From Acidobacteriota bacterium (GTDB taxonomy: Bacteria > Acidobacteriota > Terriglobia > Terriglobales > Acidobacteriaceae): a DNA stretch of 64,000 bases. Made by a program: the position numbers and the translations under genes. Location of the stretch: positions 1-64,000 of the forward strand of contig JAJYSV010000006.1 in assembly GCA_021793405.1 (NCBI GenBank), written 5' to 3'. Shown one piece after another: positions 1 to 10,603 of the stretch; position 1 is the first letter of the stretch; every line of letters begins with the position of its first letter. Below the pieces are notes generated by a model. It saw nothing but the letters and a program-made list of their open reading frames with translations, was not told the DNA's origin and did not search any database.

Positions 1-104
1 TCCTCCGCCGTGCGATACACCCGCTTCGCCCGGCCACCATCCACACCAACTTCAATCGCATCGCTCACAAACAGATCGTCGCCCACGCACACGCTTATGT
101 CCAT
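1..104 (-). CDS. 5' part of an unidentified gene, divergent from the mobilisation module
   Basis: The minus strand is open from an ATG at 104 to the window edge (34 codons) and begins MDISVCVGDDLFVSD. An in-frame stop lies seven codons upstream of the ATG, so this would be the true start. The composition (Val, Asp, Gly, Glu) looks like protein, while the opposite strand reads as a Ser/Thr/Pro/Arg-rich run typical of antisense. No clear ribosome binding site is visible and I do not recognise the family. If real, it is transcribed away from the TrwA-like gene and shares a 65-base control region with it. Confidence 0.35.
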   Translation of the reverse strand, partial: MDISVCVGDDLFVSDAIEVGVDGGRAKRVYRTAE

Positions 105-169
105 ACGGCGAGAGCCGGACGCTTACGCCAAAATCATAGGGTGCAAGCTGATTTCGAGGCGGTTTTCCC

Positions 170-520
170 ATGAGTGTTCCCCGCGTCCCGGCTCCGTTGC
201 AGTCTCCGGCCTCACCGCAGGGCGAAGCGCGTCCGGTTCTCCGTGCCAAAACCATTGCAACCAGGGTCACACCGGAAGAACTGGCCGAGGTAGAAGCTGC
301 CGCCGAAGGCGCGGGGAAAACCTTGGCCGAGTGGCTGCGTGAGCTGGCTTTGAAAGCCGCGCGGGAGCGCCCGGCAGACCCTACAGAGTTGGTACTGGCC
401 GAGGTCTCGGCGCTCCGCTACATGCTCCTGAATCTCTTCCATGCGACGGCCCAGGCGGACGCCCGCAAATTGCTCGCAGAGTTTCTGTCCCCGGAGGGAC
501 CGGACGGGGGCAAGCCGTGA
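170..520 (+). CDS. Ribbon-helix-helix mobilisation accessory protein (TrwA/MobC-like)
   Basis: This 116-residue protein has a disordered Pro/Ala-rich N-terminus followed by a segment at about residues 28-62 (RVTPEELAEVEAAAE, then TLAEWLRELALKAA). That pattern matches the beta strand and two helices of ribbon-helix-helix DNA-binding proteins. Such proteins act in the relaxosome: they bind oriT, assist the relaxase and repress their own operon. The role is inferred mainly from position: it overlaps the coupling-protein gene by four bases (GTGA), and a MOBF relaxase follows, the order seen in TrwA-TrwB-TrwC systems. It could instead be a plain transcriptional repressor of the module. Confidence 0.75.
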   Translation: MSVPRVPAPLQSPASPQGEARPVLRAKTIATRVTPEELAEVEAAAEGAGKTLAEWLRELALKAARERPADPTELVLAEVSALRYMLLNLFHATAQADARKLLAEFLSPEGPDGGKP

Positions 521-2484
521 GCCGCCCCATGCATTTCCCAGGCCGGACGGGGCGGCTGTTCTGGTTCCTTTTCTGGCTTGCGGTCGGCCCTCTTGTGCTC
601 ATCTTCCCGGCGGCGGCTTGGCTAGCCTGGACACTCCAGCCACTCCAAAAGGTCTACCTCACGACCTATGCCGCCAGCTCCCTCGGAACCGGTCTGCCCC
701 GCAACGAGATGAGCCTCCGATGGGTGATGAAGACCGCGCCCAGGCGGAAACCCGTTCCTGCCTCAGTCGAGGATGTGGTTGCTGGACCGGACTCGAAGCT
801 GCCCGTCAGCCTCTCGCCCAAGGCCATCGCGGAGGGCTGGCGTGGAGTGGCATATAGTGCCCCGGAGAAGGTGCCCGCCGACAGTCTCGCCAAAGGATTG
901 CGGGACTACGTTTATGACGGCGTTAGCGTGTGGTGGTTGTTTGGCCGTCCCATGCTGAATAGCCTTGCGGTGCTCATGCTGCTCTATGTGCTCCGGCTCC
1001 AGATGAAGCAGGGATTCGGGCGACGACAGCAGGAAGAACGTCACGGACGCAGAACCAAAGGCCCGGAGCTGGCCTCGGCCTTCCGGTGGCGTGGTGCAAA
1101 GACGGACGGCATACGGTTCCGCTTGTGCTTCGAGAACGCGCTTTTGCGGTGGCTGCCCTTTGGCCCAAGCTATTGCATCCCGAGGCGCCTTGAGGCAAGT
1201 CACATTCTGATGATGGGCGACACCGGCAGCGGAAAGTCGAATGCCATCCGGCAGCTTCTTCGCCAGATGCGGGAATGCGGCGAGAGCGCCATCGTTTACG
1301 ACCCGGCAATGGACTTTGTGAGCGAGTTCTACTCGCCCGCGCGCGGCGATTTGATTCTCAATCCGCTGGACCAGCGTTGCCCGTATTGGGGTCTAGGCGA
1401 TGAGATCGACCGCGACGAAACAGCGGCGACCATCGCCGCCGCGTTCCTGCCCGAAAAAGAATATGAGAAGGAGTTTTTCACCGATGGGCCGCGCCGGATA
1501 CTGGCCCATCTGCTCAAGCGGAGGCCGCAGCCGAGGGACATTCTGAGGATGATGGCCGACCCATCGCGGATCGAGGCGGCGGTGAAGGGAACGCCGCTGG
1601 CCGCCCTGCTCGATTCGGGAGCACCGGCACAGCGGGCGGGTGTGCTCGCGAGCTTAAACATGGTGGCCGACAGCCTAGAGCTGCTGCCGGAGTGGGAACA
1701 TACCAGGCCGACGTTTGCAACGGCAGAGTGGTACGCGAGCCGGAAGCGTTGGGTGTTTCTGACTTCCACTCCCGCCTACCGTGCGAAGATTCTGCCGCTT
1801 CATTCCGTGTGGCTCGATTTATTCATCCTTCGCATGATGGGCTACTGTGAGGACCACACGGCGAAGCCGGTATGGTTTGTGATGGACGAGCTGGCGAGCC
1901 TCAATAAGCTGCCGCAACTCCACGCCGCCGTCACGGAAAACCGCAAGTATGGGAATCCTGTTGTATTGGGTTTTCAGGGGCGCAGCCAGCTTGAAAAACG
2001 CTACGGTCAGGATGCCGAGGCCATGCTTTCGCAGCCCGCAACCAAGCTGTTTTTTAAGACCACCGAGCCGCGTGCGGCCAAGTGGATTTCCGATGCTATC
2101 GGGGAAATTGAAGTGGAGCGGTTGAAGGAGTCGCGCAGCATGAGGCTGCTAGGCAGCAGAAAGTCGTATGCGATGGAGATTGCGACCAAGCCGCTTGTCA
2201 TGGCTTCGGAAATCTCCGGCCTCGAACCGCTGCACGGCTTCATCAAGCAGGAAAACCGCGTTGTGCCGGTTCACTTCCAGTTCGCCAAGAAGCACGGCAG
2301 ACAGCCGGAGTTCATTGAGCGCAAGTTGCCAGAGATCGTGCCCAAGCCGTTACCGCCGCCGGTAGCTCATACAGAGCAACCTAAGACACCGGCAGCGGCC
2401 CAGACCGCGCTCCCACTCTTCGATGCACCGGCTGACAAACCTAAAGAGGCGTTTGTGTGGGATGAATCCAAGGGGATTGAGTGA
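517..2484 (+). CDS. Type IV coupling protein (VirD4/TraD/TrwB family)
   Basis: This 655-residue ATPase should dock the relaxase-DNA complex onto a secretion channel at the inner membrane. Two N-terminal hydrophobic segments, near residues 10-35 and 140-163, are the usual membrane anchor. The Walker A motif GDTGSGKS lies near residue 234 and the Walker B region FVMDELASL near residue 453. The tail after about 600 is Pro-rich and probably disordered. The GTG start overlaps the upstream stop by four bases, implying translational coupling. The length is in the normal range for TrwB/TraD proteins. No other secretion-channel component is visible in the window, so the channel must be encoded elsewhere or be absent. 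Confidence 0.9.
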   Translation: MSRPMHFPGRTGRLFWFLFWLAVGPLVLIFPAAAWLAWTLQPLQKVYLTTYAASSLGTGLPRNEMSLRWVMKTAPRRKPVPASVEDVVAGPDSKLPVSLSPKAIAEGWRGVAYSAPEKVPADSLAKGLRDYVYDGVSVWWLFGRPMLNSLAVLMLLYVLRLQMKQGFGRRQQEERHGRRTKGPELASAFRWRGAKTDGIRFRLCFENALLRWLPFGPSYCIPRRLEASHILMMGDTGSGKSNAIRQLLRQMRECGESAIVYDPAMDFVSEFYSPARGDLILNPLDQRCPYWGLGDEIDRDETAATIAAAFLPEKEYEKEFFTDGPRRILAHLLKRRPQPRDILRMMADPSRIEAAVKGTPLAALLDSGAPAQRAGVLASLNMVADSLELLPEWEHTRPTFATAEWYASRKRWVFLTSTPAYRAKILPLHSVWLDLFILRMMGYCEDHTAKPVWFVMDELASLNKLPQLHAAVTENRKYGNPVVLGFQGRSQLEKRYGQDAEAMLSQPATKLFFKTTEPRAAKWISDAIGEIEVERLKESRSMRLLGSRKSYAMEIATKPLVMASEISGLEPLHGFIKQENRVVPVHFQFAKKHGRQPEFIERKLPEIVPKPLPPPVAHTEQPKTPAAAQTALPLFDAPADKPKEAFVWDESKGIE

Positions 2485-2635
2485 CCGGAAACGTTTACGG
2501 GGACTGATCGGGCTTCGCGCAAACAAGAATAAATTTCGTTTTCTGTTCGCCTTTTTGCCCCGATTCGGTTTATATTGTGGTTGAGGCACGCGCGCTGCTG
2601 TACACCGGCTGGCGGCGGGAACGGAAGGGGCAGAA

Positions 2636-2878
2636 ATGACAGAACAGAAGTTCTTTACAGGACAGACGGTCAAGCTGAAGTCCGGCGGCCCTGTGATGAC
2701 CGTCATGGGTACTCCCGTCTTCGGCATGAATCCGTATATGTATGTGTGTCAGTGGTTTGTTGGAAAGTCATACAAGCAAGCCGAATTTCCGGGACCGAAT
2801 CTCAAATTGGCAGCCCCGGAAGAAACGCCGAAGCGCGTGGTTGCCCGCAAGCCGCGCGGTATGTATCTCGGGCGATAA
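2636..2878 (+). CDS. Small DUF2158 (YodC-like) protein
   Basis: An 80-residue protein beginning MTEQKFFTGQTVKLKSGGP, which matches the start of DUF2158 proteins: a short beta-barrel-like fold with a Val-x-Leu-Lys-Ser-Gly-Gly-Pro-x-Met core, followed by a Cys-x-Trp segment. Their function is unknown, and they are often found on plasmids and integrated elements. A strong Shine-Dalgarno (AAGGGG) sits about five bases before the ATG. It lies 150 bases after the coupling-protein gene and may be cargo of the module rather than a transfer function. Confidence 0.8.
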   Translation: MTEQKFFTGQTVKLKSGGPVMTVMGTPVFGMNPYMYVCQWFVGKSYKQAEFPGPNLKLAAPEETPKRVVARKPRGMYLGR

Positions 2879-3005
2879 GGCCACCCCACGACTGCTACAA
2901 AGCGCCGCCGAACCCGCCACGGAAGCCCAACTACTCAAAGCGAATTCGGCGTTAATTCCTACAATTGAAGCGAACAGCCGCATCAAGAGTCTGCACGAGG
3001 AAAGT

Positions 3006-3947
3006 ATGCTCAGACGAGGCTTACATCTCACAGTTGCGTTGGCCGGGCTGATGTGTGGAGCCTGTTGGGGACAGCAAAACCAGAGTGCAGCACTGCAAAC
3101 CCAACTTGACCGCTATTGCGAGCAGCGCGGCAAAGAGCAGATCGACAACAACGATAAGCCGCTCCGAGTCGAGGCATTCTTCAGCCCGCGAATCGACACT
3201 TGCATTCAGTTGATCGTCAGCAGCGACCCGAAATACTGGCACTACACAATCAGCGACATCACGAATGGGTTTATGCACGGGCCAAAATGGACGAAAACAG
3301 AAGTCCCGTTAAAGGTGTTCCATTACGATCAAATTGCAAGTGCGGAAGGATACTGGGTGTCTACTGACCCAAGTCCTGACAAACAATTAGTAGGTCAGAC
3401 CGCCGTTAAGATCGAATGTACCCAGTACGATCACGTTTGCAGGGAAAACGATGCGTCCATGCTCATAGGTACGCTTGAGCCTGATACTGAGGAATACGAA
3501 ATCTCAAGTTGGACGAACAGCGGCATTGAGGCTGACGACACTGGCGCGGGGCGTTGCGGCATCGGGCATAAATTGTCAATCGACTTTGCCAGCAACAGCA
3601 TAGTAGTCACCGATTATCCAACGAAAATTGATAACAGTAACCCCAAGAATCCCTTTCTCTCGTGCAAAGCATTCCAAAATGCCAATTCCTATGCGCTTCA
3701 CGGTGGCAGCCTGATTTACTACGGCCAAAATGAACTGTTTGACTGTAGCGGCGACGGAGTGAACAATGCAGTTCTTTCCAAGGTGGCAGAGTTTCACGGC
3801 GATGTGGCGGATAAGAACTATCCGCTTTGGATGGATGATGGGGCCGGAGGGCCACCGGCAACAATGAAAACCCCGCCGAAGCCGTTTACCCGAAGCGACT
3901 GCGAGCGCGCCACTGCGAAAAAACTGGAAGAGCTAAGAGGTAATTGA
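3006..3947 (+). CDS. Secreted protein of unknown function, cargo between coupling protein and relaxase
   Basis: I do not recognise this 313-residue protein. The chosen ATG follows GAGGAAAGT and gives a good signal peptide (MLRRGLHLTVALAGLMCGACWG, about 24 residues) with predicted cleavage near GQQ. The mature part is polar, with scattered Cys residues (positions suggest disulfides) and no transmembrane segment, so it should be periplasmic or extracellular. The open frame extends further upstream, but only with codons overlapping the DUF2158 gene. Its lower GC content and position inside the transfer module suggest acquired cargo. An exclusion or adhesion role is possible but unsupported. Confidence 0.75.
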   Translation: MLRRGLHLTVALAGLMCGACWGQQNQSAALQTQLDRYCEQRGKEQIDNNDKPLRVEAFFSPRIDTCIQLIVSSDPKYWHYTISDITNGFMHGPKWTKTEVPLKVFHYDQIASAEGYWVSTDPSPDKQLVGQTAVKIECTQYDHVCRENDASMLIGTLEPDTEEYEISSWTNSGIEADDTGAGRCGIGHKLSIDFASNSIVVTDYPTKIDNSNPKNPFLSCKAFQNANSYALHGGSLIYYGQNELFDCSGDGVNNAVLSKVAEFHGDVADKNYPLWMDDGAGGPPATMKTPPKPFTRSDCERATAKKLEELRGN

Positions 3948-3954
3948 AGCGGAC

Positions 3955-3970
3955 GGCGGGCGGCCCCGCC
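3955..3970 (+). terminator. Possible GC-rich hairpin after the secreted cargo gene
   Basis: GGCGGG (3955-3960) pairs with CCCGCC (3965-3970) around a four-base loop, eight bases after the stop codon. The following bases are not U-rich, so an intrinsic terminator is only a weak call. Confidence 0.3.
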
Positions 3971-4122
3971 CCCGGTGTACTTTCCAACCAAAATGAGTGT
4001 GCCCACGGTCCCTCGCAGTTGGGTACTGGAGATACCCCAGATCTCAACCCGGAATCCGATTACGATACTCCAGTTCAATCCCCATAGTCGGCTTCTGTTG
4101 AGTTGCGGATTAGAATCTCCCT

Positions 4123-6882
4123 ATGCTGACGATCTCCAAACCTCTGTCAGCTTCACAGGTACGGACGTACCATGAGCGGGAGTTTGCATCAGAGCGACAA
4201 AACTACTGGAGCCGCGACCAGCAAGGACATAGCGAGTGGCAAGGCAAGCTGGCCGAGCAGTGGGGCTTGGAAGGTGCAGTTGGCAATGAGCACTTTGCGC
4301 GTCTGACCGAAGGCCAGCACCCAACCACGGAAGCGCAGCTCGTTCGCCATCAGGTTTCCAAAACCTATGAGGGCAAGTTCGGCAAGGAAGTGACGAGTGT
4401 AGAACACCGCGCCGGTTGGGATGCTACGTTCTCCGCGCCGAAGTCTGTTTCTCTCACCGCCCTTGTGGGCGGCGATGAGCGCGTGCGAGAGGCGCATCGG
4501 GAGAGCGTGCGGGTAGCCCTGACCGAGTTGGAACGCTACACACAGGCCCGCATCGGCAACGTCCACGCGCCGGAGACAACCGGCAAATTCGTTGCGGCTA
4601 CCTTTGAGCACGACACCGCGCGGCCTGTAGACGGCTACGCCGCGCCGCAGCTCCACACCCATGCTGTGATCTTCAATGTCACCGAACGCGACAACGGCCA
4701 AACACGCGCTTTGCAGCCGCAGGAGCTATTCGCGTCGCAGCGCGTCGCCACCAGCGTTTACCGTTCCGAGCTGGCGATGCGGTTACAGGGTTTGGGTTAT
4801 GAGCTGGAGCGCGGCAAGCATGGGCAGCCGGAGATCAAGGGCTATACGAAGGAATATCTGGAAGCCAGCAGTCCACGCCGGGAGCAGATCAAAGACCATC
4901 TCCGCGAACAGGGATTGGATGGAGCGGGAGCCGCGCAGGTGGCCGCACACCGGACGCGCGACAACAAAGAGCTGCTATCGCCGGGAGAGGTATTAGCGCG
5001 GCACCGCGAGCTGGCCGCACAATACGGACACCAGGCCGACCGGGTTGTGGCCGAAGCGCGGGCGCATGAACAGCGCCACGTCTACGAACCCGACCGAATC
5101 GCGCAGCAGGCTGTGACGTATGCCCGCGATCATCTCTTCGAGCGTTCCGCTGTGCTGGACCGGCGCGACATTCTGGAAGCGGCGCTCAATCGCGGCATGG
5201 GGGAGACGACGTATGCCCATGTCCGGCAGGAGTTCGCGCAGCGGGCCGCGCAGGGCGAGTTCCGCACGGTCGATCATGGTGACAGAGGGCAGCAGTACAC
5301 TACTGCCGCGATGCTTCGCATGGAACGAGAGATTGTTCAACGGATGCAGGAAGGCAATCAACACGCGGTAAATGCCCCGACGCTGGTTGATGCACGTATC
5401 CGCATTGCGACGGAGGACCGCCACCCGGAGCTGAATGTCTCGCAGCGCCAAGTCGCCGATCAGATATTTCTCTCTCGCGAAAAGATGGTGGGGCTGGATG
5501 GCGTCGCCGGGGCTGGCAAGACAACGACGCTGGCCGTCATTCGTGAAGGCGCAGAGGCGCAAGGGTACAAGGTCGAAGGCTTCGCGCCTACATCCCGCGC
5601 GGCGCAAAAACTGGCCGATGCAGGCATGGAAACATCCACGCTGCAAAAGCATCTTGCACGCGGGCAGCAGCCGGACACCGGAGAGCGCCGCCTGTATGTG
5701 CTCGATGAATCCTCGCTCGCCTCCACCAAGCAGATGCACGAGTTTGTGAATCGCCTGCATTCCAACGACCGCGTGTTGCTGGTAGGTGATCGTCGGCAGC
5801 ATGAGGCGGTTGAGGCCGGGCGTCCCTTCGCGCAGCTCCAGGACGCGGGCATGAAAACGGTGAAGCTCGAAGAGATCGTCCGACAGAAAAACCCGGAGTT
5901 AAAACAGGTGGTCGAGCAGCTTGCGCGTGGCGAGGTGCGCGAAGCCGTGCAGGGTTTGGAGCGGCAGGGCCGCGTCCATGAGATTTCAGGCCGCGAGGAA
6001 CGCATCGCCGCGATTGCGAAGGAATACGCGAAGTCGCCAGAAGGCACGCTGGTTGTCTCTCCCGACAATCGTTCCCGCGTGGAGATCAATGAGCGTATCC
6101 ATGCAGTGATGCAGGAGCGCGGCTTAGTAAGCAAAGAAGAGCATCGCATCGAGGCGCTTGTGCCCCGCCAGGACCTCACCGGGCCGGAGCGCACATGGGC
6201 AGCGCGGTATGAGTTCAACGATATTGTGCGCTACGCGCGTGCATCGAAAGAGACGGGCATGGAGCGCGGCGAATACGCGCGGGTCAAGAGCGTGGATACG
6301 GAGAAAAACCTGTTGACGGTGGTTCGGGCCGATGGCTCAGAGCTGACCTATGATCCGCGACGGCAGCAGGGCGTGTCTGTGTATCGGGAAGAGCCGCGCA
6401 GCTTCGCCGTGGGCGACCGCATCCAGTTCACCGCACCGGCGAACGATTTGAAGGTTGCCAACCGCGAATTAGGGACGGTCGAAGCCATTGGCCAGGATGG
6501 GCAGATGCGTTTGAAGATGGATGGTGGCCGTGACGTGCAGCTCGATCCACGCGAGCATCCCCATCTCGATCACGGCTATGCTGTGACGAGCCATTCCAGT
6601 CAGGGACAGACCGCCGAGCGCGTATTGATTCACGTCGATACCGAACTGGCTGCGAAAGACCTGCTCAACAGCCGCATGGCATACGTCGCCGTCTCGCGTG
6701 GCGCGGAGGATGCGCAGCTTTACACCAACGACCGCGAGAAGCTGCCCGAAGCATTAGGGCATGACGTATCCCACGAGAGCGCCCACACGCCAGCGATAAA
6801 GCCGGAGCAATCCATCAAACCGCCGCAGCAGGAAATCGCGCCAGTAAAAGAACACGACTTAGGCATGGGGCATAGTCTCTAA
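4123..6882 (+). CDS. MOBF conjugative relaxase-helicase (TrwC/TraI type)
   Basis: This 919-residue bifunctional protein would nick oriT, stay covalently attached to the DNA 5' end and unwind the plasmid. In the N-terminal relaxase domain, candidate catalytic tyrosines are Tyr16 and Tyr28, and the metal-binding triad is His163 (FEHDTAR) with His178 and His180 (QLHTHAVIF), matching the TrwC arrangement. The RecD-like helicase half carries Walker A GVAGAGKTTT near residue 460 and a UvrD-like C-terminal motif GYAVTSHSSQGQTAERV. The length is close to TrwC (966) and far below F TraI. No strong ribosome binding site is seen at the ATG. All key residues are present, so it may be functional. Confidence 0.95.
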   Translation: MLTISKPLSASQVRTYHEREFASERQNYWSRDQQGHSEWQGKLAEQWGLEGAVGNEHFARLTEGQHPTTEAQLVRHQVSKTYEGKFGKEVTSVEHRAGWDATFSAPKSVSLTALVGGDERVREAHRESVRVALTELERYTQARIGNVHAPETTGKFVAATFEHDTARPVDGYAAPQLHTHAVIFNVTERDNGQTRALQPQELFASQRVATSVYRSELAMRLQGLGYELERGKHGQPEIKGYTKEYLEASSPRREQIKDHLREQGLDGAGAAQVAAHRTRDNKELLSPGEVLARHRELAAQYGHQADRVVAEARAHEQRHVYEPDRIAQQAVTYARDHLFERSAVLDRRDILEAALNRGMGETTYAHVRQEFAQRAAQGEFRTVDHGDRGQQYTTAAMLRMEREIVQRMQEGNQHAVNAPTLVDARIRIATEDRHPELNVSQRQVADQIFLSREKMVGLDGVAGAGKTTTLAVIREGAEAQGYKVEGFAPTSRAAQKLADAGMETSTLQKHLARGQQPDTGERRLYVLDESSLASTKQMHEFVNRLHSNDRVLLVGDRRQHEAVEAGRPFAQLQDAGMKTVKLEEIVRQKNPELKQVVEQLARGEVREAVQGLERQGRVHEISGREERIAAIAKEYAKSPEGTLVVSPDNRSRVEINERIHAVMQERGLVSKEEHRIEALVPRQDLTGPERTWAARYEFNDIVRYARASKETGMERGEYARVKSVDTEKNLLTVVRADGSELTYDPRRQQGVSVYREEPRSFAVGDRIQFTAPANDLKVANRELGTVEAIGQDGQMRLKMDGGRDVQLDPREHPHLDHGYAVTSHSSQGQTAERVLIHVDTELAAKDLLNSRMAYVAVSRGAEDAQLYTNDREKLPEALGHDVSHESAHTPAIKPEQSIKPPQQEIAPVKEHDLGMGHSL

Positions 6883-6939: not shown

Positions 6940-6970
6940 CTACACATTTCTCCTACACAATTCCTACACA
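6940..6970 (+). repeat. Three direct CTACACA repeats in an AT-rich spacer
   Basis: CTACACA occurs at 6940-6946, 6953-6959 and 6964-6970, spaced 13 and 11 bases. The last two lie in a near-tandem TCCTACACAAT / TCCTACACAGC. The surrounding 130 bases between the relaxase stop and the transglutaminase stop are AT-rich compared with their neighbours. Confidence 0.6.
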
Positions 6971-7018: not shown

Positions 7019-8062
7019 TCAACTCACTCGCTCAGGATGACAACCCTGCTTGTGAGGCGGAGTGTATGCCGCCATCGAAGATTGCTGTTGCTGCATATGC
7101 TGCAGCTGGAGCAAGGTCGAAGGCGGTGGAGGCGGCTCCTGCGCGCGCTCGACGAGAATCGACCAATCTTCAGGGACTGGCATGTCCTGGTCGAGTTCGG
7201 GTGCCTTGTCGAAGGCCGTTACCTGGACGGCGACGTAGAGTTCGCTGTCGGAGCGGCCGCGATAGATGCCGGTCGTGGGGGGGACGTCGGCGTAGTCGCG
7301 GCCAATAGCGGTGCGAATATGCCGTTCATGGGCGAGAAGATTGTTGGTGGGATCGAAGCCAACCCAACCCACATGGGGAAGAAAGGCCTCGGCCCACGCG
7401 TGCGTCGCGTCGGATACGGACCGGTCCATGTGCTCTTTGCCGTGGTAGAAATAGCCGCTGACATAGCGGCAGGGAATGCCGAGATGGCGCACCAGCGCAA
7501 TCATAGTGTGAGTGAAATCCTGGCAAACTCCATTGCGCGACTGGATGGCTTCGTCGATGGGCGAGTCGACGCGGGTGCTGCGCGGCACGTAGTTGAAGTA
7601 CTGGTACAGCTTTTCATTCATCTCACGCAGCAGGATGAGCGGGTCATCACGGCGGCGCACGTCAAAGAGTTCGACCAGACCCATGAGTGCCGGAGTGGGC
7701 TTGGCGAATTCGCTGGGTAGCAGCATCTCCCAGTAATCGCCCTCAGCAACAAGAGCGTCCAGTTGCGCCCAGGCGCCAGGATGCAGAAAATGCGGCACTG
7801 CGCCGAGCGACTGCTGTTCGACCAGAGCTTCCGCGACGATGACGAGCTGGGAATGCTCGCCGGGAATGTCGAAATGGTGGACATTGTTGCCGAGGTGATC
7901 GCGATAGGAAAAGACGCGGCAGCGCGGGCTGACGGAAAGGGAGAAGGAGAGGCAGCGCTGGTTGCTGTCACTGCGCGGGTGCATGCGCGTTTCCATGACG
8001 CTTTCACTGACCGGGTCGCTATAGCGGAATTTGGTAAGGTGCCGGATAGAGAAAAATTTCAT
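7019..8062 (-). CDS. Transglutaminase-like protein of the Anbu cluster (second copy)
   Basis: A 347-residue protein with an N-terminal transglutaminase-associated region and a transglutaminase-fold core. The catalytic Cys is in GVCQDFTH, the His in ATHAWAEAF and the Asp in VGFDPTNN, so the Cys-His-Asp triad is complete. The ATG at 8062 was preferred because GAGGG lies five bases upstream. Such proteins sit beside ATP-grasp and alpha-E genes in predicted peptide-ligation systems, where they may cleave or transfer amide bonds. It is the last gene of a four-gene minus-strand operon. Oddly, the last ten or so codons (ending HPERVS) are formed by a dispersed intergenic repeat that also supplies the stop codon. 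Confidence 0.92.
   Translation of the reverse strand: MKFFSIRHLTKFRYSDPVSESVMETRMHPRSDSNQRCLSFSLSVSPRCRVFSYRDHLGNNVHHFDIPGEHSQLVIVAEALVEQQSLGAVPHFLHPGAWAQLDALVAEGDYWEMLLPSEFAKPTPALMGLVELFDVRRRDDPLILLREMNEKLYQYFNYVPRSTRVDSPIDEAIQSRNGVCQDFTHTMIALVRHLGIPCRYVSGYFYHGKEHMDRSVSDATHAWAEAFLPHVGWVGFDPTNNLLAHERHIRTAIGRDYADVPPTTGIYRGRSDSELYVAVQVTAFDKAPELDQDMPVPEDWSILVERAQEPPPPPSTLLQLQHMQQQQSSMAAYTPPHKQGCHPERVS
7023..7053 (-). repeat. Dispersed GTCATCCTGAGC-type repeat, copy 1
   Basis: Read on the minus strand, this contains GTCATCCTGAGCGAG, the core of short repeats common between genes in acidobacterial genomes (recalled, not searched). It aligns with the copy at 32209-32243 over 25 bases with 20 identities. 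It forms the 3' end of the transglutaminase gene. Confidence 0.6.
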
Positions 8063-8097
8063 CTTGCCCTCGCGGAAAAAATTCGTTCCAGATAAGG

Positions 8098-9057
8098 TTA
8101 GGCGGAAAGCGCCGCCTGCACGGAATAGTGAATGTAGGAACCGTAAATCAGGTCGTGGATCAGCAGACACTGGCGCAGAATGTTCGACATGTACGCGGAG
8201 ACGTCCTGGTCGAGAATCTCAGTGATCTCGGCAAAATTGAGCGAGGCTTGCAGGCGTCCGGTCATTCGGCTCAGCTCATCCGAGGAAAGCCTGCCGCTGG
8301 ACTGCTGCACGGAAATCACGGCCTGCCGCAGGCCATCGATGGCATAGCGGACAGAGTGCGGGAAGTCCGGATTGAGCAGCAGAAATTCAAGAATCCATTC
8401 GTGGGTCAGGTCCGCGGTATAGACGCGACAGTAGGCTTCAAACGCAGTGCAACAGCGGAGAAGGCCAATCCATTCCAGATATTGATTGCTGTCGGGGGTC
8501 TGCTGGGCTGTCACAAAGAAATCCCGATAATAAATATCGAGGAGTTTCACGGTCGCGAAGGCGCGCTCAATAGAGCGGCCCATCTGGATGAACTGCCAGC
8601 CTTCCCCATGGTTCATGGTGGTGTCCGTGACGCCCTGGAACAGATGCAGGCCATCGAGCACGGAGGGAATAAACTCTTCCAATCCGTGACCGCTGCCAGA
8701 GGTGTTCGGTTCGGTGGCCTGGAGGTAGAGACGATTCAGTCGCTGCCATTGTTCCGTGCTCAGCTCATCGCGAACCTGGCGCGCATTTTCGCGGGCGGAA
8801 ACGATGCAGGCAGTAATCGACGCGTGGTTGTCGGCATCGAAGGTGAGCGCGCGCACCAGCTGGTTGTAATCGCCCTGCCATTCGATTTCCTCCGGGTTGC
8901 CGAGCGCCGCCAGGACGCGGAGCCAGCGGCCCTCCGCGCTGGTGCTGGAGCGGTCGAGCATCAGGCCCATATTTACATCGAGCAGGCGCACCGTATGCTC
9001 TGCGCGCTCGAGATAACGGCTCATCCAGTAGAGACTGTCAGCAACTCGTGAAAGCAT
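8098..9057 (-). CDS. Alpha-E domain protein (DUF403)
   Basis: A 319-residue all-helical protein beginning MLSRVADSLYWMSRYLERAE, the signature start of alpha-E proteins. They co-occur with circularly permuted ATP-grasp proteins and transglutaminases and are thought to be helical partners of the ligase; no enzymatic activity is established. The ATG at 9057 was chosen because GAGG lies six bases upstream; an in-frame ATG at 9063 and a TTG at 9069 are less well placed. It is separated by 35 bases from the second transglutaminase gene and by 37 from the ATP-grasp gene, consistent with one transcript. Confidence 0.93.
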   Translation of the reverse strand: MLSRVADSLYWMSRYLERAEHTVRLLDVNMGLMLDRSSTSAEGRWLRVLAALGNPEEIEWQGDYNQLVRALTFDADNHASITACIVSARENARQVRDELSTEQWQRLNRLYLQATEPNTSGSGHGLEEFIPSVLDGLHLFQGVTDTTMNHGEGWQFIQMGRSIERAFATVKLLDIYYRDFFVTAQQTPDSNQYLEWIGLLRCCTAFEAYCRVYTADLTHEWILEFLLLNPDFPHSVRYAIDGLRQAVISVQQSSGRLSSDELSRMTGRLQASLNFAEITEILDQDVSAYMSNILRQCLLIHDLIYGSYIHYSVQAALSA

Positions 9058-9094
9058 ACGCATCCTCAACTAGTTCCGCGGTTCCATGAAACTG

Positions 9095-10603
9095 CTAGTC
9101 ATTCAATACCCAGGTATCTTTGCTGCCGCCGCCCTGCGATGAGTTGACGACCAGCGAGCCCTTGGGCAATGCGACTCGCGTCAGGCCGCCTGGGACGATG
9201 GTGACCTTATCTCCGTACAGAATGTAAGGCCGCAGATCGACATGACGGGGTTCGATGCTTGGCAAATCGGGGCTGCCCATCAGGCAGGGAGCGCGGGAGA
9301 AGTCCAGTGTCGGTTGGGCAATGTAATTGCGCGGGTTGGTCTCAATCAAGGCACGGAACTCGTCACGCTGGGCCTGTGTACTCTTGGGGCCAATCAACAT
9401 GCCGTAGCCGCCGGATTCGCCGACCGCCTTGATGACCAGCTTGTCGAGATTCTGTAGCGTGTGCTGGCGCTGCGCGGGATCAGTCATCAGATAGGTCTCG
9501 ACATTCTGAAGCAGCGGCTCCTCCCCAAGGTAATAGCGGATGATGGCGGGAACGTAGGCGTAAATGGCCTTGTCGTCGGCGAGACCGGTGCCGAAAGCAT
9601 TGGCGAGTGTCACATTCCCGGCGCGATAGGCGTTGAAGAGCCCGGCCACGCCGAGGATCGAATCGGAACGGAAGGCCAGGGGATCGATGAAGTCGTCGTC
9701 GACGCGGCGATAAATCACATCGACGCGCTTGAGGCCGGCCGTGGTGCGCATATACACGACGTTGTCATGGATCACCAGGTCGCGGCCCTCGACCAGTTCA
9801 ATGCCCATCTGGCGGGCGAGGTAGGTGTGCTCAAAGTAGGCCGAGTTGTAGATGCCCGGAGTGAGCAGCACAATGGAGGGTTCAGGGCGGCCCTCGGGAG
9901 CGAGCGAGCGAAGCGTGCTGAGCAGAACTCGCGTGTAGTGTTCGATGGGACGCACGCCATATTTGGTGAAGAGTTGCGGAAAGATCCGCTTCATGACGCG
10001 ACGGCAGGTCAGCATGTAACTGACGCCGCTAGGGACACGCAAGTTGTCTTCCAGCACAACGAAGTCGCCATTGCCGAGACGCAACAGGTCGGTGCCGGTG
10101 ACGGCGATATAGACATTGCGCGGGACCTGCAGACCCCGCATTTCACGGCGAAAGTGCCGGCAGCTGTAGACGATCTCGCGCGGGACAAAGCCGTCCGCGA
10201 GGATTTTGCCTTCGTTATATACGTCGCGGAGAAATAGATTCAGCGCGGTGATGCGCTGCGTCAATCCTTTTTCAATCCGTTCCCATTCTCCGGCCGTAAT
10301 GATGCGGGGCAGCAGATCGTAGGGAAAAATGCGCTCCGTGCCCTCATCCCGTCCATAGACGGTGAAGGTGATTCCCTGCATCAGGAACGAGAGATCGGCG
10401 GACTGCTTACGCCGATGCAATTCTTCTTTGGGGAGTTTTGAAAACGTGCTCAGCAGGGACTCGTAGTGAGGGCGAACCACCCCCTGATCGTCGAACATCT
10501 CGTCAAACGCGGCATCGAGAAAGTATTCTTCGAGAGCCGGGTCTTTGCGCCGCGGCCTATCTACGCCGGGCGTTTGCGCGCGGACTTCACTGTTGGTGGG
10601 CAT
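9095..10603 (-). CDS. Circularly permuted ATP-grasp protein (DUF404/DUF407 type)
   Basis: A protein of 502 residues from the ATG at 10603. It belongs to the circularly permuted ATP-grasp family predicted to ligate amino acids or peptides with ATP. Typical segments are [16 protein letters not shown] near the start, [11 protein letters not shown], a Tyr-Ser-Cys-Arg segment, [20 protein letters not shown], and GESGGYGML, the phosphate-binding-like loop. The C-terminal part carries LRPYILYG. The start overlaps the end of the upstream transglutaminase gene by 17 bases, suggesting coupling. An upstream in-frame ATG at 10696 lies deeper inside the neighbour and is less likely. The actual substrate is unknown for the whole family. 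Confidence 0.93.

What the first reader, a model, noticed from the sequence alone, without database searches (positions are those of the whole stretch)
170..6882. Compact TrwABC-like MOBF mobilisation module with cargo between coupling protein and relaxase
The order RHH accessory protein, VirD4-type protein, DUF2158, secreted protein, MOBF relaxase is visible, with catalytic Tyr16/Tyr28 and the His triad intact. No secretion channel, integrase or replication gene is in the window. Either a mobilisable element uses another element's channel, or this is one end of a larger integrated conjugative element cut by the left edge. The two intervening genes are unusual there.
Basis: partly seen in the sequence, partly recalled or inferred. 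Interest (0 to 1): 0.55.

Follow-up and report, generated by a model that had tools for sequence, protein, structure and literature searches.

The report
Hitchhiking mobile element in genomic repeats
The DNA-transfer genes at the start of the window are the right-hand end of a "hitchhiking" mobile element of a soil acidobacterium, which appears to slot itself into short repeats scattered over the host chromosome and to need another element's secretion channel in order to move.

Summary
In detail: NikA-like RHH protein, TrwB, DUF2158, orphan secreted protein and MOBF relaxase with Tyr16/Tyr28 and the His triad. The module is the right end of an integrative mobilizable element (IME), not a fixed locus. 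The nearest relative searched has the same site empty, with both flanks contiguous. The element ends at window 7029-7040 in a 12-bp core (CGCTCAGGATGA) that also sits at its left end, on another contig. A sister (contig C54) has the same ends in an unrelated place. Both empty sites are copies of a REP-like repeat. Relatives have a tyrosine integrase inside the left end (its contig is missing here); 45 of 45 integrase loci with a matched N-terminus start beside a GGATGA core. The relaxase falls in a 10-row clade without a detected T4SS; T4SS-bearing elements co-reside. The trwB-trwC interval is a cargo slot: over 600 bp in four of six full-TrwB pairs of this clade, at most 19 bp in the 27 pairs outside it. 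The window stops at an IS that separates nikA from a putative oriT. Three clade members carry a TrwB-like protein without motor domain. MOBF IMEs are known; this is a new variant.

The parts
1..126 (-). End of a multicopy insertion sequence (N-terminus of a transposase OrfA on the - strand; terminal GTAAGCG; IS66-like, label recalled). It cuts the element and probably causes the contig break.
   Evidence: The same 122-132 bp lie at the ends of contigs C89, C59, C35, C50, C137 at 98-100%, near an end of C135 at 92% and in C28 at 70%; the six aligned contig ends diverge right after GCTTACG; PF01527 in the longer C135 copy; IS end at 126, nikA ATG at 170.
127..169 (.). 43 bp left of the nikA leader. 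The oriT-like region upstream of nikA in relatives (CACGTCACCCCC box, GTTTAC/GTAAAC-type repeats) is not on this contig: the IS lies in between.
   Evidence: Alignment of nikA upstream regions, motif positions.
170..520 (+). NikA-like ribbon-helix-helix accessory protein (TrwA position)
   Evidence: PF21983 E 4.6e-9
517..2484 (+). TrwB/VirD4-type coupling protein, 655 aa
   Evidence: PF10412 E 3.3e-82; Walker A GDTGSGKS
2636..2878 (+). Cargo slot gene 1: DUF2158 small protein
   Evidence: PF09926 E 1.8e-11; the only DUF2158 match in this genome; an 81% homologue in the same slot of G007:C60 on the opposite strand
3006..3947 (+). Cargo slot gene 2: orphan protein of 313 aa with a signal-like N-terminus
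   Evidence: ORF; no Pfam or NCBIfam family, no plasmid match, no relative in viral contigs, no other locus of those compared
4123..6882 (+). MOBF relaxase-helicase TrwC, 919 aa
   Evidence: PF08751 E 1.3e-84, AAA_30 helicase; NF041492 MobF above cut-off; catalytic residues
6940..7028 (+). Right attachment arm with three CT[GA]CAC[AG] repeats (starting at 6940, 6953, 6964), probably integrase arm sites
   Evidence: Similar right ends in seven other loci; the motif occurs 1-3 times in 8 of 8 right arms and on average 2.8 times per 160 bp in 45 left arms against 0.07 background
7029..7040 (+). attR core CGCTCAGGATGA, identical to the core at the left end on contig C7 (positions 105-116); chromosome follows
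   Evidence: Junctions against G009, left end, coordinates
7019..8170 (-). Chromosomal flank: transglutaminase-like gene; its last codons lie inside the element end. Collinear with G009 at 93% from 7028 rightwards

Best explanation
The window begins inside an integrative mobilizable element (IME) of an acidobacterium. Shown from sequence: the element ends at 7029-7040; it sits in a REP-like repeat that is empty in a relative; both ends match those of a sister element elsewhere in the genome; relatives carry a tyrosine integrase just inside the left end; no T4SS was detected in the relaxase clade, while T4SS-bearing MOBF elements co-reside. Inferred: the integrase recombines a core that resembles the REP (attP) with REP copies in the chromosome (attB); NikA and TrwC nick an oriT upstream of nikA; the element's own TrwB docks the relaxosome on a channel supplied by a co-resident T4SS element; the trwB-trwC slot carries maintenance or accessory cargo. 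This copy is probably impaired, since an IS separates nikA from the putative oriT and promoter.
For: Empty site: G009:C61 is collinear with window 7028-10441 and with G000 contig C7. Sister C54 has the same right end at C54:12163 and the same left end on C91, with its empty site in G009:C57. Integrase (PF00589) inside the left end in G002, G007, G009 and G048; C54 base 1 is homologous to the DNA just after that integrase. GGATGA core (44 exact, 1 with one mismatch) 138-158 bp before 45 of 45 integrases examined, with 44 distinct flanks; one of the 11 loci left out, L220, shows the same junction. REP 22-mer CTTCGCNNCGCTCAGGATGACA: 8 times in G009, 3 in G007, 0 in the reversed control. Shared arm motif at both ends. 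Relaxase clade of 10 rows at 100/100, none labelled T4SS. T4SS genes beside the relaxase in C51, C58, C75 and C11.
Against: The integrase contig and the middle of this element are not assembled in G000, so for this copy integrase presence and T4SS absence are inferred from its sister and relatives. The exact 22-mer REP is absent from G000, G026 and G015; of the 8 in G009 one is the C57 empty site and one the C210 element end, and of the 3 in G007 one is the C87 element end, so 6 and 2 are independent. In G000 the repeat is known from six diverged copies. In 0.97 Mb of fetched DNA TTCGCTCAGGATGAC with up to one mismatch occurs 8 times, but two of these are element ends and one lies 14 bp before a truncated integrase, leaving 5 clear ones (0-1 for 20 permuted motifs). 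8 of 45 attL flanks lack T(T/C)CG in the 12 bp tested and only 34 of 45 have TCAGGATGA. Excision, transfer and helper use are untested. No IS target duplication could be matched.
Confidence: 0.85

Rival explanations
1. The module is one end of a full ICE whose T4SS lies in the unassembled part left of the IS.
For: The middle of this element is missing; other MOBF elements in the same genome carry T4SS genes next to trwB-trwC.
Against: In those elements the VirB genes lie upstream of trwB and the relaxase is only about 55-57% identical. The bounded relatives C54 (apart from about 1.5 kb) and G048 have no T4SS hit.
Confidence: 0.08
2. A dead remnant: the IS insertion and decayed copies elsewhere mean that this copy has no present mobility.
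For: The IS ends 43 bp before the nikA start codon; degenerate copies exist in G026 and Edaphobacter L206.
Against: NikA, TrwB and TrwC frames are open and the catalytic residues intact; the left end is identical over the 127 bp shared with the sister's contig (127 may be the assembler's word size, so the identity may be longer), which suggests recent spread.
Confidence: 0.3
3. Fixed chromosomal relaxase locus with a housekeeping role.
For: None found.
Against: Empty site in G009; PF08751 found in 19 of 81 genomes searched, own genome included, patchily.
Confidence: 0.01
4. Integration is by the relaxase itself (as recalled for R388 TrwC) rather than by a tyrosine integrase.
For: The relaxase gene lies near the right end (stop at 6882, core at 7029).
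Against: A tyrosine integrase lies at the left end in relatives, and both ends share a direct-repeat core and arm-type repeats as expected for tyrosine integrases; the core differs from the putative oriT boxes.
Confidence: 0.04

Closest known systems
R388 TrwABC mobilization module (recalled; Pfam TrwC, TrwB)
   Same: Gene order RHH protein - TrwB - TrwC; MOBF relaxase with two Tyr and a His triad; in relatives an oriT-like region upstream of the RHH gene.
   Different: No adjacent T4SS; cargo genes between trwB and trwC; chromosomal, with a tyrosine integrase in bounded relatives. The RHH protein matches NikA-like; it was not compared with TrwA itself.
IMEs with their own VirD4 coupling protein and MobC relaxase (two putative streptococcal IMEs; Guedon 2017, PMC5704250: section 5 part 1, section 11 and passages read)
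   Same: Own relaxase and coupling protein; the helper's T4SS is used.
   Different: MOBF instead of MobC; that review says no known canonical IME encoded MobF or MobH (passage) and names MobC for the two coupling-protein IMEs.
MOBF IMEs of Mesorhizobium (Colombi 2021, PMC8627217; passages read)
   Same: Integrated mobilizable elements with MOBF relaxases; mobilizable plasmids and IMEs there that lacked traACD carried a virD4-like gene, and one IME had a lone MOBF gene.
   Different: 25 IMEs there are of TraACD type; the att sites named are tRNA genes and radC. Here TrwC-type with TrwB, at REP-like sites.
Granulicella tundricola plasmids pACIX904 and pACIX905
   Same: pACIX904: NikA-like gene, motor-less TrwB-like gene, mobF 70% identical, typed mobilizable; pACIX905 of the same strain is typed conjugative (MPF_T) with VirB genes next to mobF.
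   Different: Replicating plasmids, not integrated elements; the NikA-like match on pACIX904 is below Pfam's cut-off (22.1 against 27 bits).

Membership tests
Integrative mobilizable element (IME) | Integrated between att sites with a short direct repeat; empty site in a relative | tested here: met
   12-bp core at both ends; empty site in G009
Integrative mobilizable element (IME) | Encodes its own integrase | tested here: inconclusive
   Tyrosine integrase inside the left end in four relatives; the corresponding stretch was not found in G000
Integrative mobilizable element (IME) | Own mobilization gene(s), no complete T4SS | tested here: inconclusive
   Relaxase, RHH protein and T4CP present; no VirB/TrbI hit in the window nor in sister C54, of which about 1.5 kb is unassembled; the middle of this copy is not assembled
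Integrative mobilizable element (IME) | Transfer in trans by a helper element | not testable with these tools
   T4SS-bearing elements co-reside; transfer needs a mating
MOBF relaxase family | TrwC domain, catalytic Tyr pair, HxH triad, C-terminal helicase | tested here: met
   PF08751, PF13604; NF041492 over cut-off; residues in 43 of 43
Integrative conjugative element (ICE) | Own T4SS / mating-pair apparatus | tested here: inconclusive
   No hit in the assembled part, in the bounded sister or in the G048 relative; the unassembled middle is unknown
R388-type TrwABC module | trwA-trwB-trwC order with oriT upstream of trwA | tested here: inconclusive
   Order met; GTTTAC/GTAAAC-type repeats upstream of nikA in 7 of 7 relatives, the CACGTCACCCCC box exact in 4 of 7; both absent from the 43 bp left here; nic site not mapped

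The most novel reading that the evidence does not exclude
A family of tyrosine integrases across the Acidobacteriaceae has specialised on the host's dispersed REP-like palindromes as multicopy, gene-safe attB sites, letting several MOBF IMEs with defence and toxin-antitoxin cargo accumulate in one genome; and in some members the coupling protein has been reduced to a motor-less adaptor (membrane and periplasmic part plus a conserved C-terminal tail) that would link the element's relaxosome to the helper's TrwB.
Probability: 0.4. Interest if true: 0.78.

Novelty: new variant of a known kind. Interest (0 to 1): 0.6.

Why it matters
IMEs are thought to be very common but little studied. Here an abundant soil phylum appears to hold a family of MOBF IMEs with their own coupling protein, integrated in repeated sequences rather than in tRNA or housekeeping genes. 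A repeated attB would explain how related elements pile up in one genome (one MAG has six integrase loci of this family; G000 has 11 TrwC matches, only some of this clade) and would give REP-like repeats a role as landing sites. The motor-less TrwB variants offer a natural way to separate docking from pumping in a coupling protein.

Tried and rejected
Fixed locus: contradicted by the empty site. tRNA attachment: ARAGORN found no tRNA in the window or in ten relaxase loci of G000. Matching the IS target duplication to find the contig left of the IS: no hit. Finding the rest of this element: no other fetched G000 contig starts like C54 or carries a second copy of the C54 left part; unresolved, and only part of G000 was fetched.

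Function of the secreted protein: no Pfam or NCBIfam family, no plasmid hit, no relative in viral contigs; a single-sequence structure prediction was useless (mean pLDDT 35.8), so no fold search was run. The pair DUF2158 + secreted protein was not found in the other loci compared.

Print searches for a REP-like attB: searches returned no paper; others (2 listed of 2; 15 of 92; 12 of 343) listed papers of which none showed this in its title or abstract start. on a coupling protein lacking the ATPase domain returned none. Searches were list views too; of the papers listed I opened four: PMC5704250 (section 5 part 1, section 11, passages), PMC8627217, PMC11389934 and PMC5900883 (passages only; the last two gave nothing on REP-like sites or on MOBF IMEs in Acidobacteria). 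This does not show that nothing is in print.

The count of 45 attL loci leaves out 11 of the 56 loci (L201, L203-L206, L214, L217-L221) because their match lacked the integrase N-terminus, was very short or was distant; one of them, L220, turned out to have the same junction. The count of the core motif masked only the 45 mapped left ends; one search lists the eight hits and shows that two are element ends.
Full report
WHERE THE WINDOW LIES. The window is bases 1-64000 of contig C14 in a 4.6-Mb draft genome of 137 contigs, G000. Several relatives have contigs of the same length as records titled Acidobacteria or Acidobacteriaceae, so I take the host to be an acidobacterium (inference). The left edge is a contig edge. 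Bases 1-126 are the end of a multicopy insertion sequence: the same 122-132 bases lie at the ends of five other contigs at 98-100% identity, near the end of a sixth at 92%, and in C28 at 70%; six aligned contig ends diverge just after it, and its longer copy encodes a PF01527 transposase start. The terminal GTAAGCG suggests IS66 (recalled).

THE MODULE. Tyr16, Tyr28, His163, His178 and His180 are present in 43 of 43 aligned relaxases. The genome has 11 TrwC matches (10 long, one fragment) and 7 strong TrwB matches among 16 listed.

THE RIGHT END AND THE EMPTY SITE. G009 was the closest match to the window's flank among 31 genomes searched (94%). It is collinear with the window from 7028 rightwards at 93%. 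Left of that point G009 continues into a gene whose G000 homologue is on another contig, C7:106-2107. So C7 and C14 flank an insertion that G009 lacks. C7 carries the same REP-like repeat, and next to it a new sequence beginning GAACTATATC.

A SISTER INSERTION. Contig C54 holds a sister module (TrwC 92-93% identical) whose right end is the same...AAATCAACTCACY then CGCTCAGGATGACA, at C54:12163. Its flank is again collinear with G009 (90-91%), and its left flank lies on contig C91, which ends in the same left end as C7, identical over 127 bp with the core and flank included. Two insertions of related elements therefore share both ends and the same target position. The empty sites in G009 read GGATCCTTCGCTTCGCTCAGAATGACA and AGATCCTTCGCTGCGCTCAGGATGACA.

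THE TARGET IS A DISPERSED REPEAT. Six further diverged copies of this repeat came up in G000. The pattern CTTCGCNNCGCTCAGGATGACA occurs 8 times in G009 and 3 in G007, but 0 times in G000, G026 and G015, with 0 for the reversed control in all five. Two of the eight (the C57 empty site, the C210 element end) and one of the three (the C87 element end) are sites discussed here, so 6 and 2 are independent. In 0.97 Mb of other fetched DNA TTCGCTCAGGATGAC with up to one mismatch occurs 8 times; two are element ends (the window's own and L220), one lies 14 bp before a truncated integrase, five are elsewhere; 20 permuted motifs gave 0 or 1. I call the repeat REP-like from its inverted-repeat look; it was not compared with curated REP families.

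THE INTEGRASE. The left end was found in G002, G007 and G009 (the weaker matches of that search were not followed). Just inside it lies a tyrosine recombinase (PF00589, E 1.9e-12 for the G009 copy), also in G048 (92% identical to the G007 one) and, truncated, in G003 and G026. C54 base 1 is homologous to the DNA just after this gene, so in G000 about 1.5 kb with the integrase is missing from the assembly, probably because two copies are identical (inference). A GTDB scan gave 56 loci. In the 45 whose integrase N-terminus was matched, a GGATGA core (44 exact, 1 with one mismatch) lies 138-158 bp upstream of the start, against 0.012 exact ones expected per such interval; 44 of 45 flanks are distinct, and 37 of 45 have T(T/C)CG within the 12 bp tested to the left. 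Both ends carry the repeat CT[GA]CAC[AG]: mean 2.8 per 160 bp in 45 left arms against 0.07 background, and 1-3 in 8 of 8 right arms, mostly at similar distances. The motif was chosen from these ends, so the numbers describe it rather than test it blindly.

BOUNDED RELATIVES. In G048 the whole element lies on one contig, 20.7 kb between cores: integrase, a type IIG restriction-modification protein (PADLOC 1.4e-280), a helicase, NikA, TrwB, TrwC, ArdC. C54 (about 13.8 kb including the gap, my sum) has ArdC, a PIN/RHH pair, a Sel1-trypsin protein, NikA, TrwB, RelB-ParE and TrwC. G003 carries ArdC, type I methyltransferase and specificity genes and GajA/GajB, but no TrwB or NikA hit. None shows a VirB or TrbI hit, partial hits included. 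Broken copies with a right end occur in G026 and in Edaphobacter.

THE RELAXASE CLADE AND HELPERS. In a tree of 45 relaxases, ten rows form one group with 100/100 support: C14, C54, C80, C24, G007:C60, G048, G045, G003:C47, G003:C171 and plasmid pACIX904. The nine genomic rows have no T4SS hit, and pACIX904 is typed mobilizable, with no VirB gene annotated in the 42.7 kb seen. All 21 rows labelled T4SS lie outside the group. Several stretches are short because contigs end (6.4 kb for G045, 9.7 kb for G003:C171), so absence is not proof. In G000 four other relaxase loci carry T4SS genes: all five queries hit at C51 and C58, three at C75 and two at C11, whose contigs end there.

THE CARGO SLOT. 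The distance from TrwB stop to TrwC start was measured for 33 pairs. In 20 of 20 T4SS-linked pairs it is at most 9 bp, and in the 27 pairs outside the IME clade at most 19 bp. Over 600 bp occurs in 4 of 33: C14 (1638), C54 (675), C80 (2018) and G007:C60 (1140), all in the IME clade, where the other two full-TrwB pairs have 21 (G048) and 49 bp (G045). Contents: DUF2158 plus orphan secreted protein (C14); RelB-ParE (C54); RelB-ParE plus an aspartyl protease with PDZ domain (C80); DUF2158 on the opposite strand (G007). The function of the C14 pair is not known; from its place I guess accessory or maintenance cargo.

MOTOR-LESS TRWB. C24 (256 aa), G003:C171 (301 aa) and pACIX904 (311 aa) have, between NikA-like gene and TrwC, an intact frame resembling the N-terminal part of TrwB and ending in a similar WDxS/T tail, with no Pfam match at E 0.1. 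BLAST similarity is weak (33% over TrwB residues 36-157 for C24, 35% over 17-168 for G003:C171); pACIX904 was compared only in the multiple alignment. In the tree the three do not form one group (2 changes).

ORIT. Upstream of nikA, GTTTAC/GTAAAC-type repeats recur in seven of seven relatives examined and the box CACGTCACCCCC exactly in four of them (C54, C24, G007:C60, G048); C80 has a near-copy and the G045 contig ends inside the box. The motifs were read off the alignment. In C14 the IS leaves only 43 bp before the nikA start.

LITERATURE. Guedon 2017 (PMC5704250; section 5 part 1, section 11 and passages; [quoted passage not shown] Colombi 2021 (PMC8627217; passages) describes MOBF IMEs in Mesorhizobium, at tRNA and radC sites. 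So MOBF IMEs are known; a TrwB-bearing one in a dispersed repeat did not show up in my searches (list views, two of them capped).

Noticed in passing
L012:8658-9428; L082:667-1572; L223:19049-19984: Three relaxase operons of the same clade carry a TrwB-like protein lacking the ATPase motor but keeping the N-terminal membrane part and a WDxS/T C-terminal tail; open frames in three replicons.
   Followed up: partly
L199 (Micavibrio MAG contig JAPWJZ010000006.1): An integrase 83% identical to the acidobacterial ones, with the same GGATGA core, lies on a 382-kb contig binned as Micavibrio: cross-phylum transfer or a binning error.
   Followed up: no
L012:12284-12422; L017:4506-4641; L015:15842-15980; L011:4836-4995: A palindromic repeat of about 140 bp bounded by TGACATTCCCCGGATA-like inverted ends near several relaxase loci; looks like a miniature transposable element (the C54 copy is partial).
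   Followed up: no
L072:446-9186 (G003), L077:15598-18348 (G048): Elements of this family carry defence genes: type I methyltransferase and specificity subunits and GajA/GajB in G003, an MmeI-like type IIG enzyme in G048.
   Followed up: partly
L169, L178, L181, L182, L183, L216 (JAKATU010000054/58/79/73/41/77): One MAG (YP3.bin104) has six integrase loci of this family (one with only the N-terminal 135 residues matched).
   Followed up: no
L014:16707-16901 (contig C80): A second relaxase C-terminal remnant lies about 13.6 kb from the intact relaxase gene: trace of an older or tandem element.
   Followed up: no
L011:32-135 (contig C54): A stretch of about 100 bp just after the integrase gene is conserved in many of the integrase loci; function unknown (excisionase, RNA or attachment site?).
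   Followed up: no
L015, L017, L078, L079, L081, L083, L086: A distant relaxase group (about 30-34% identical to the window's) without a TrwB or T4SS hit in the stretches fetched; its role was not studied.
   Followed up: no
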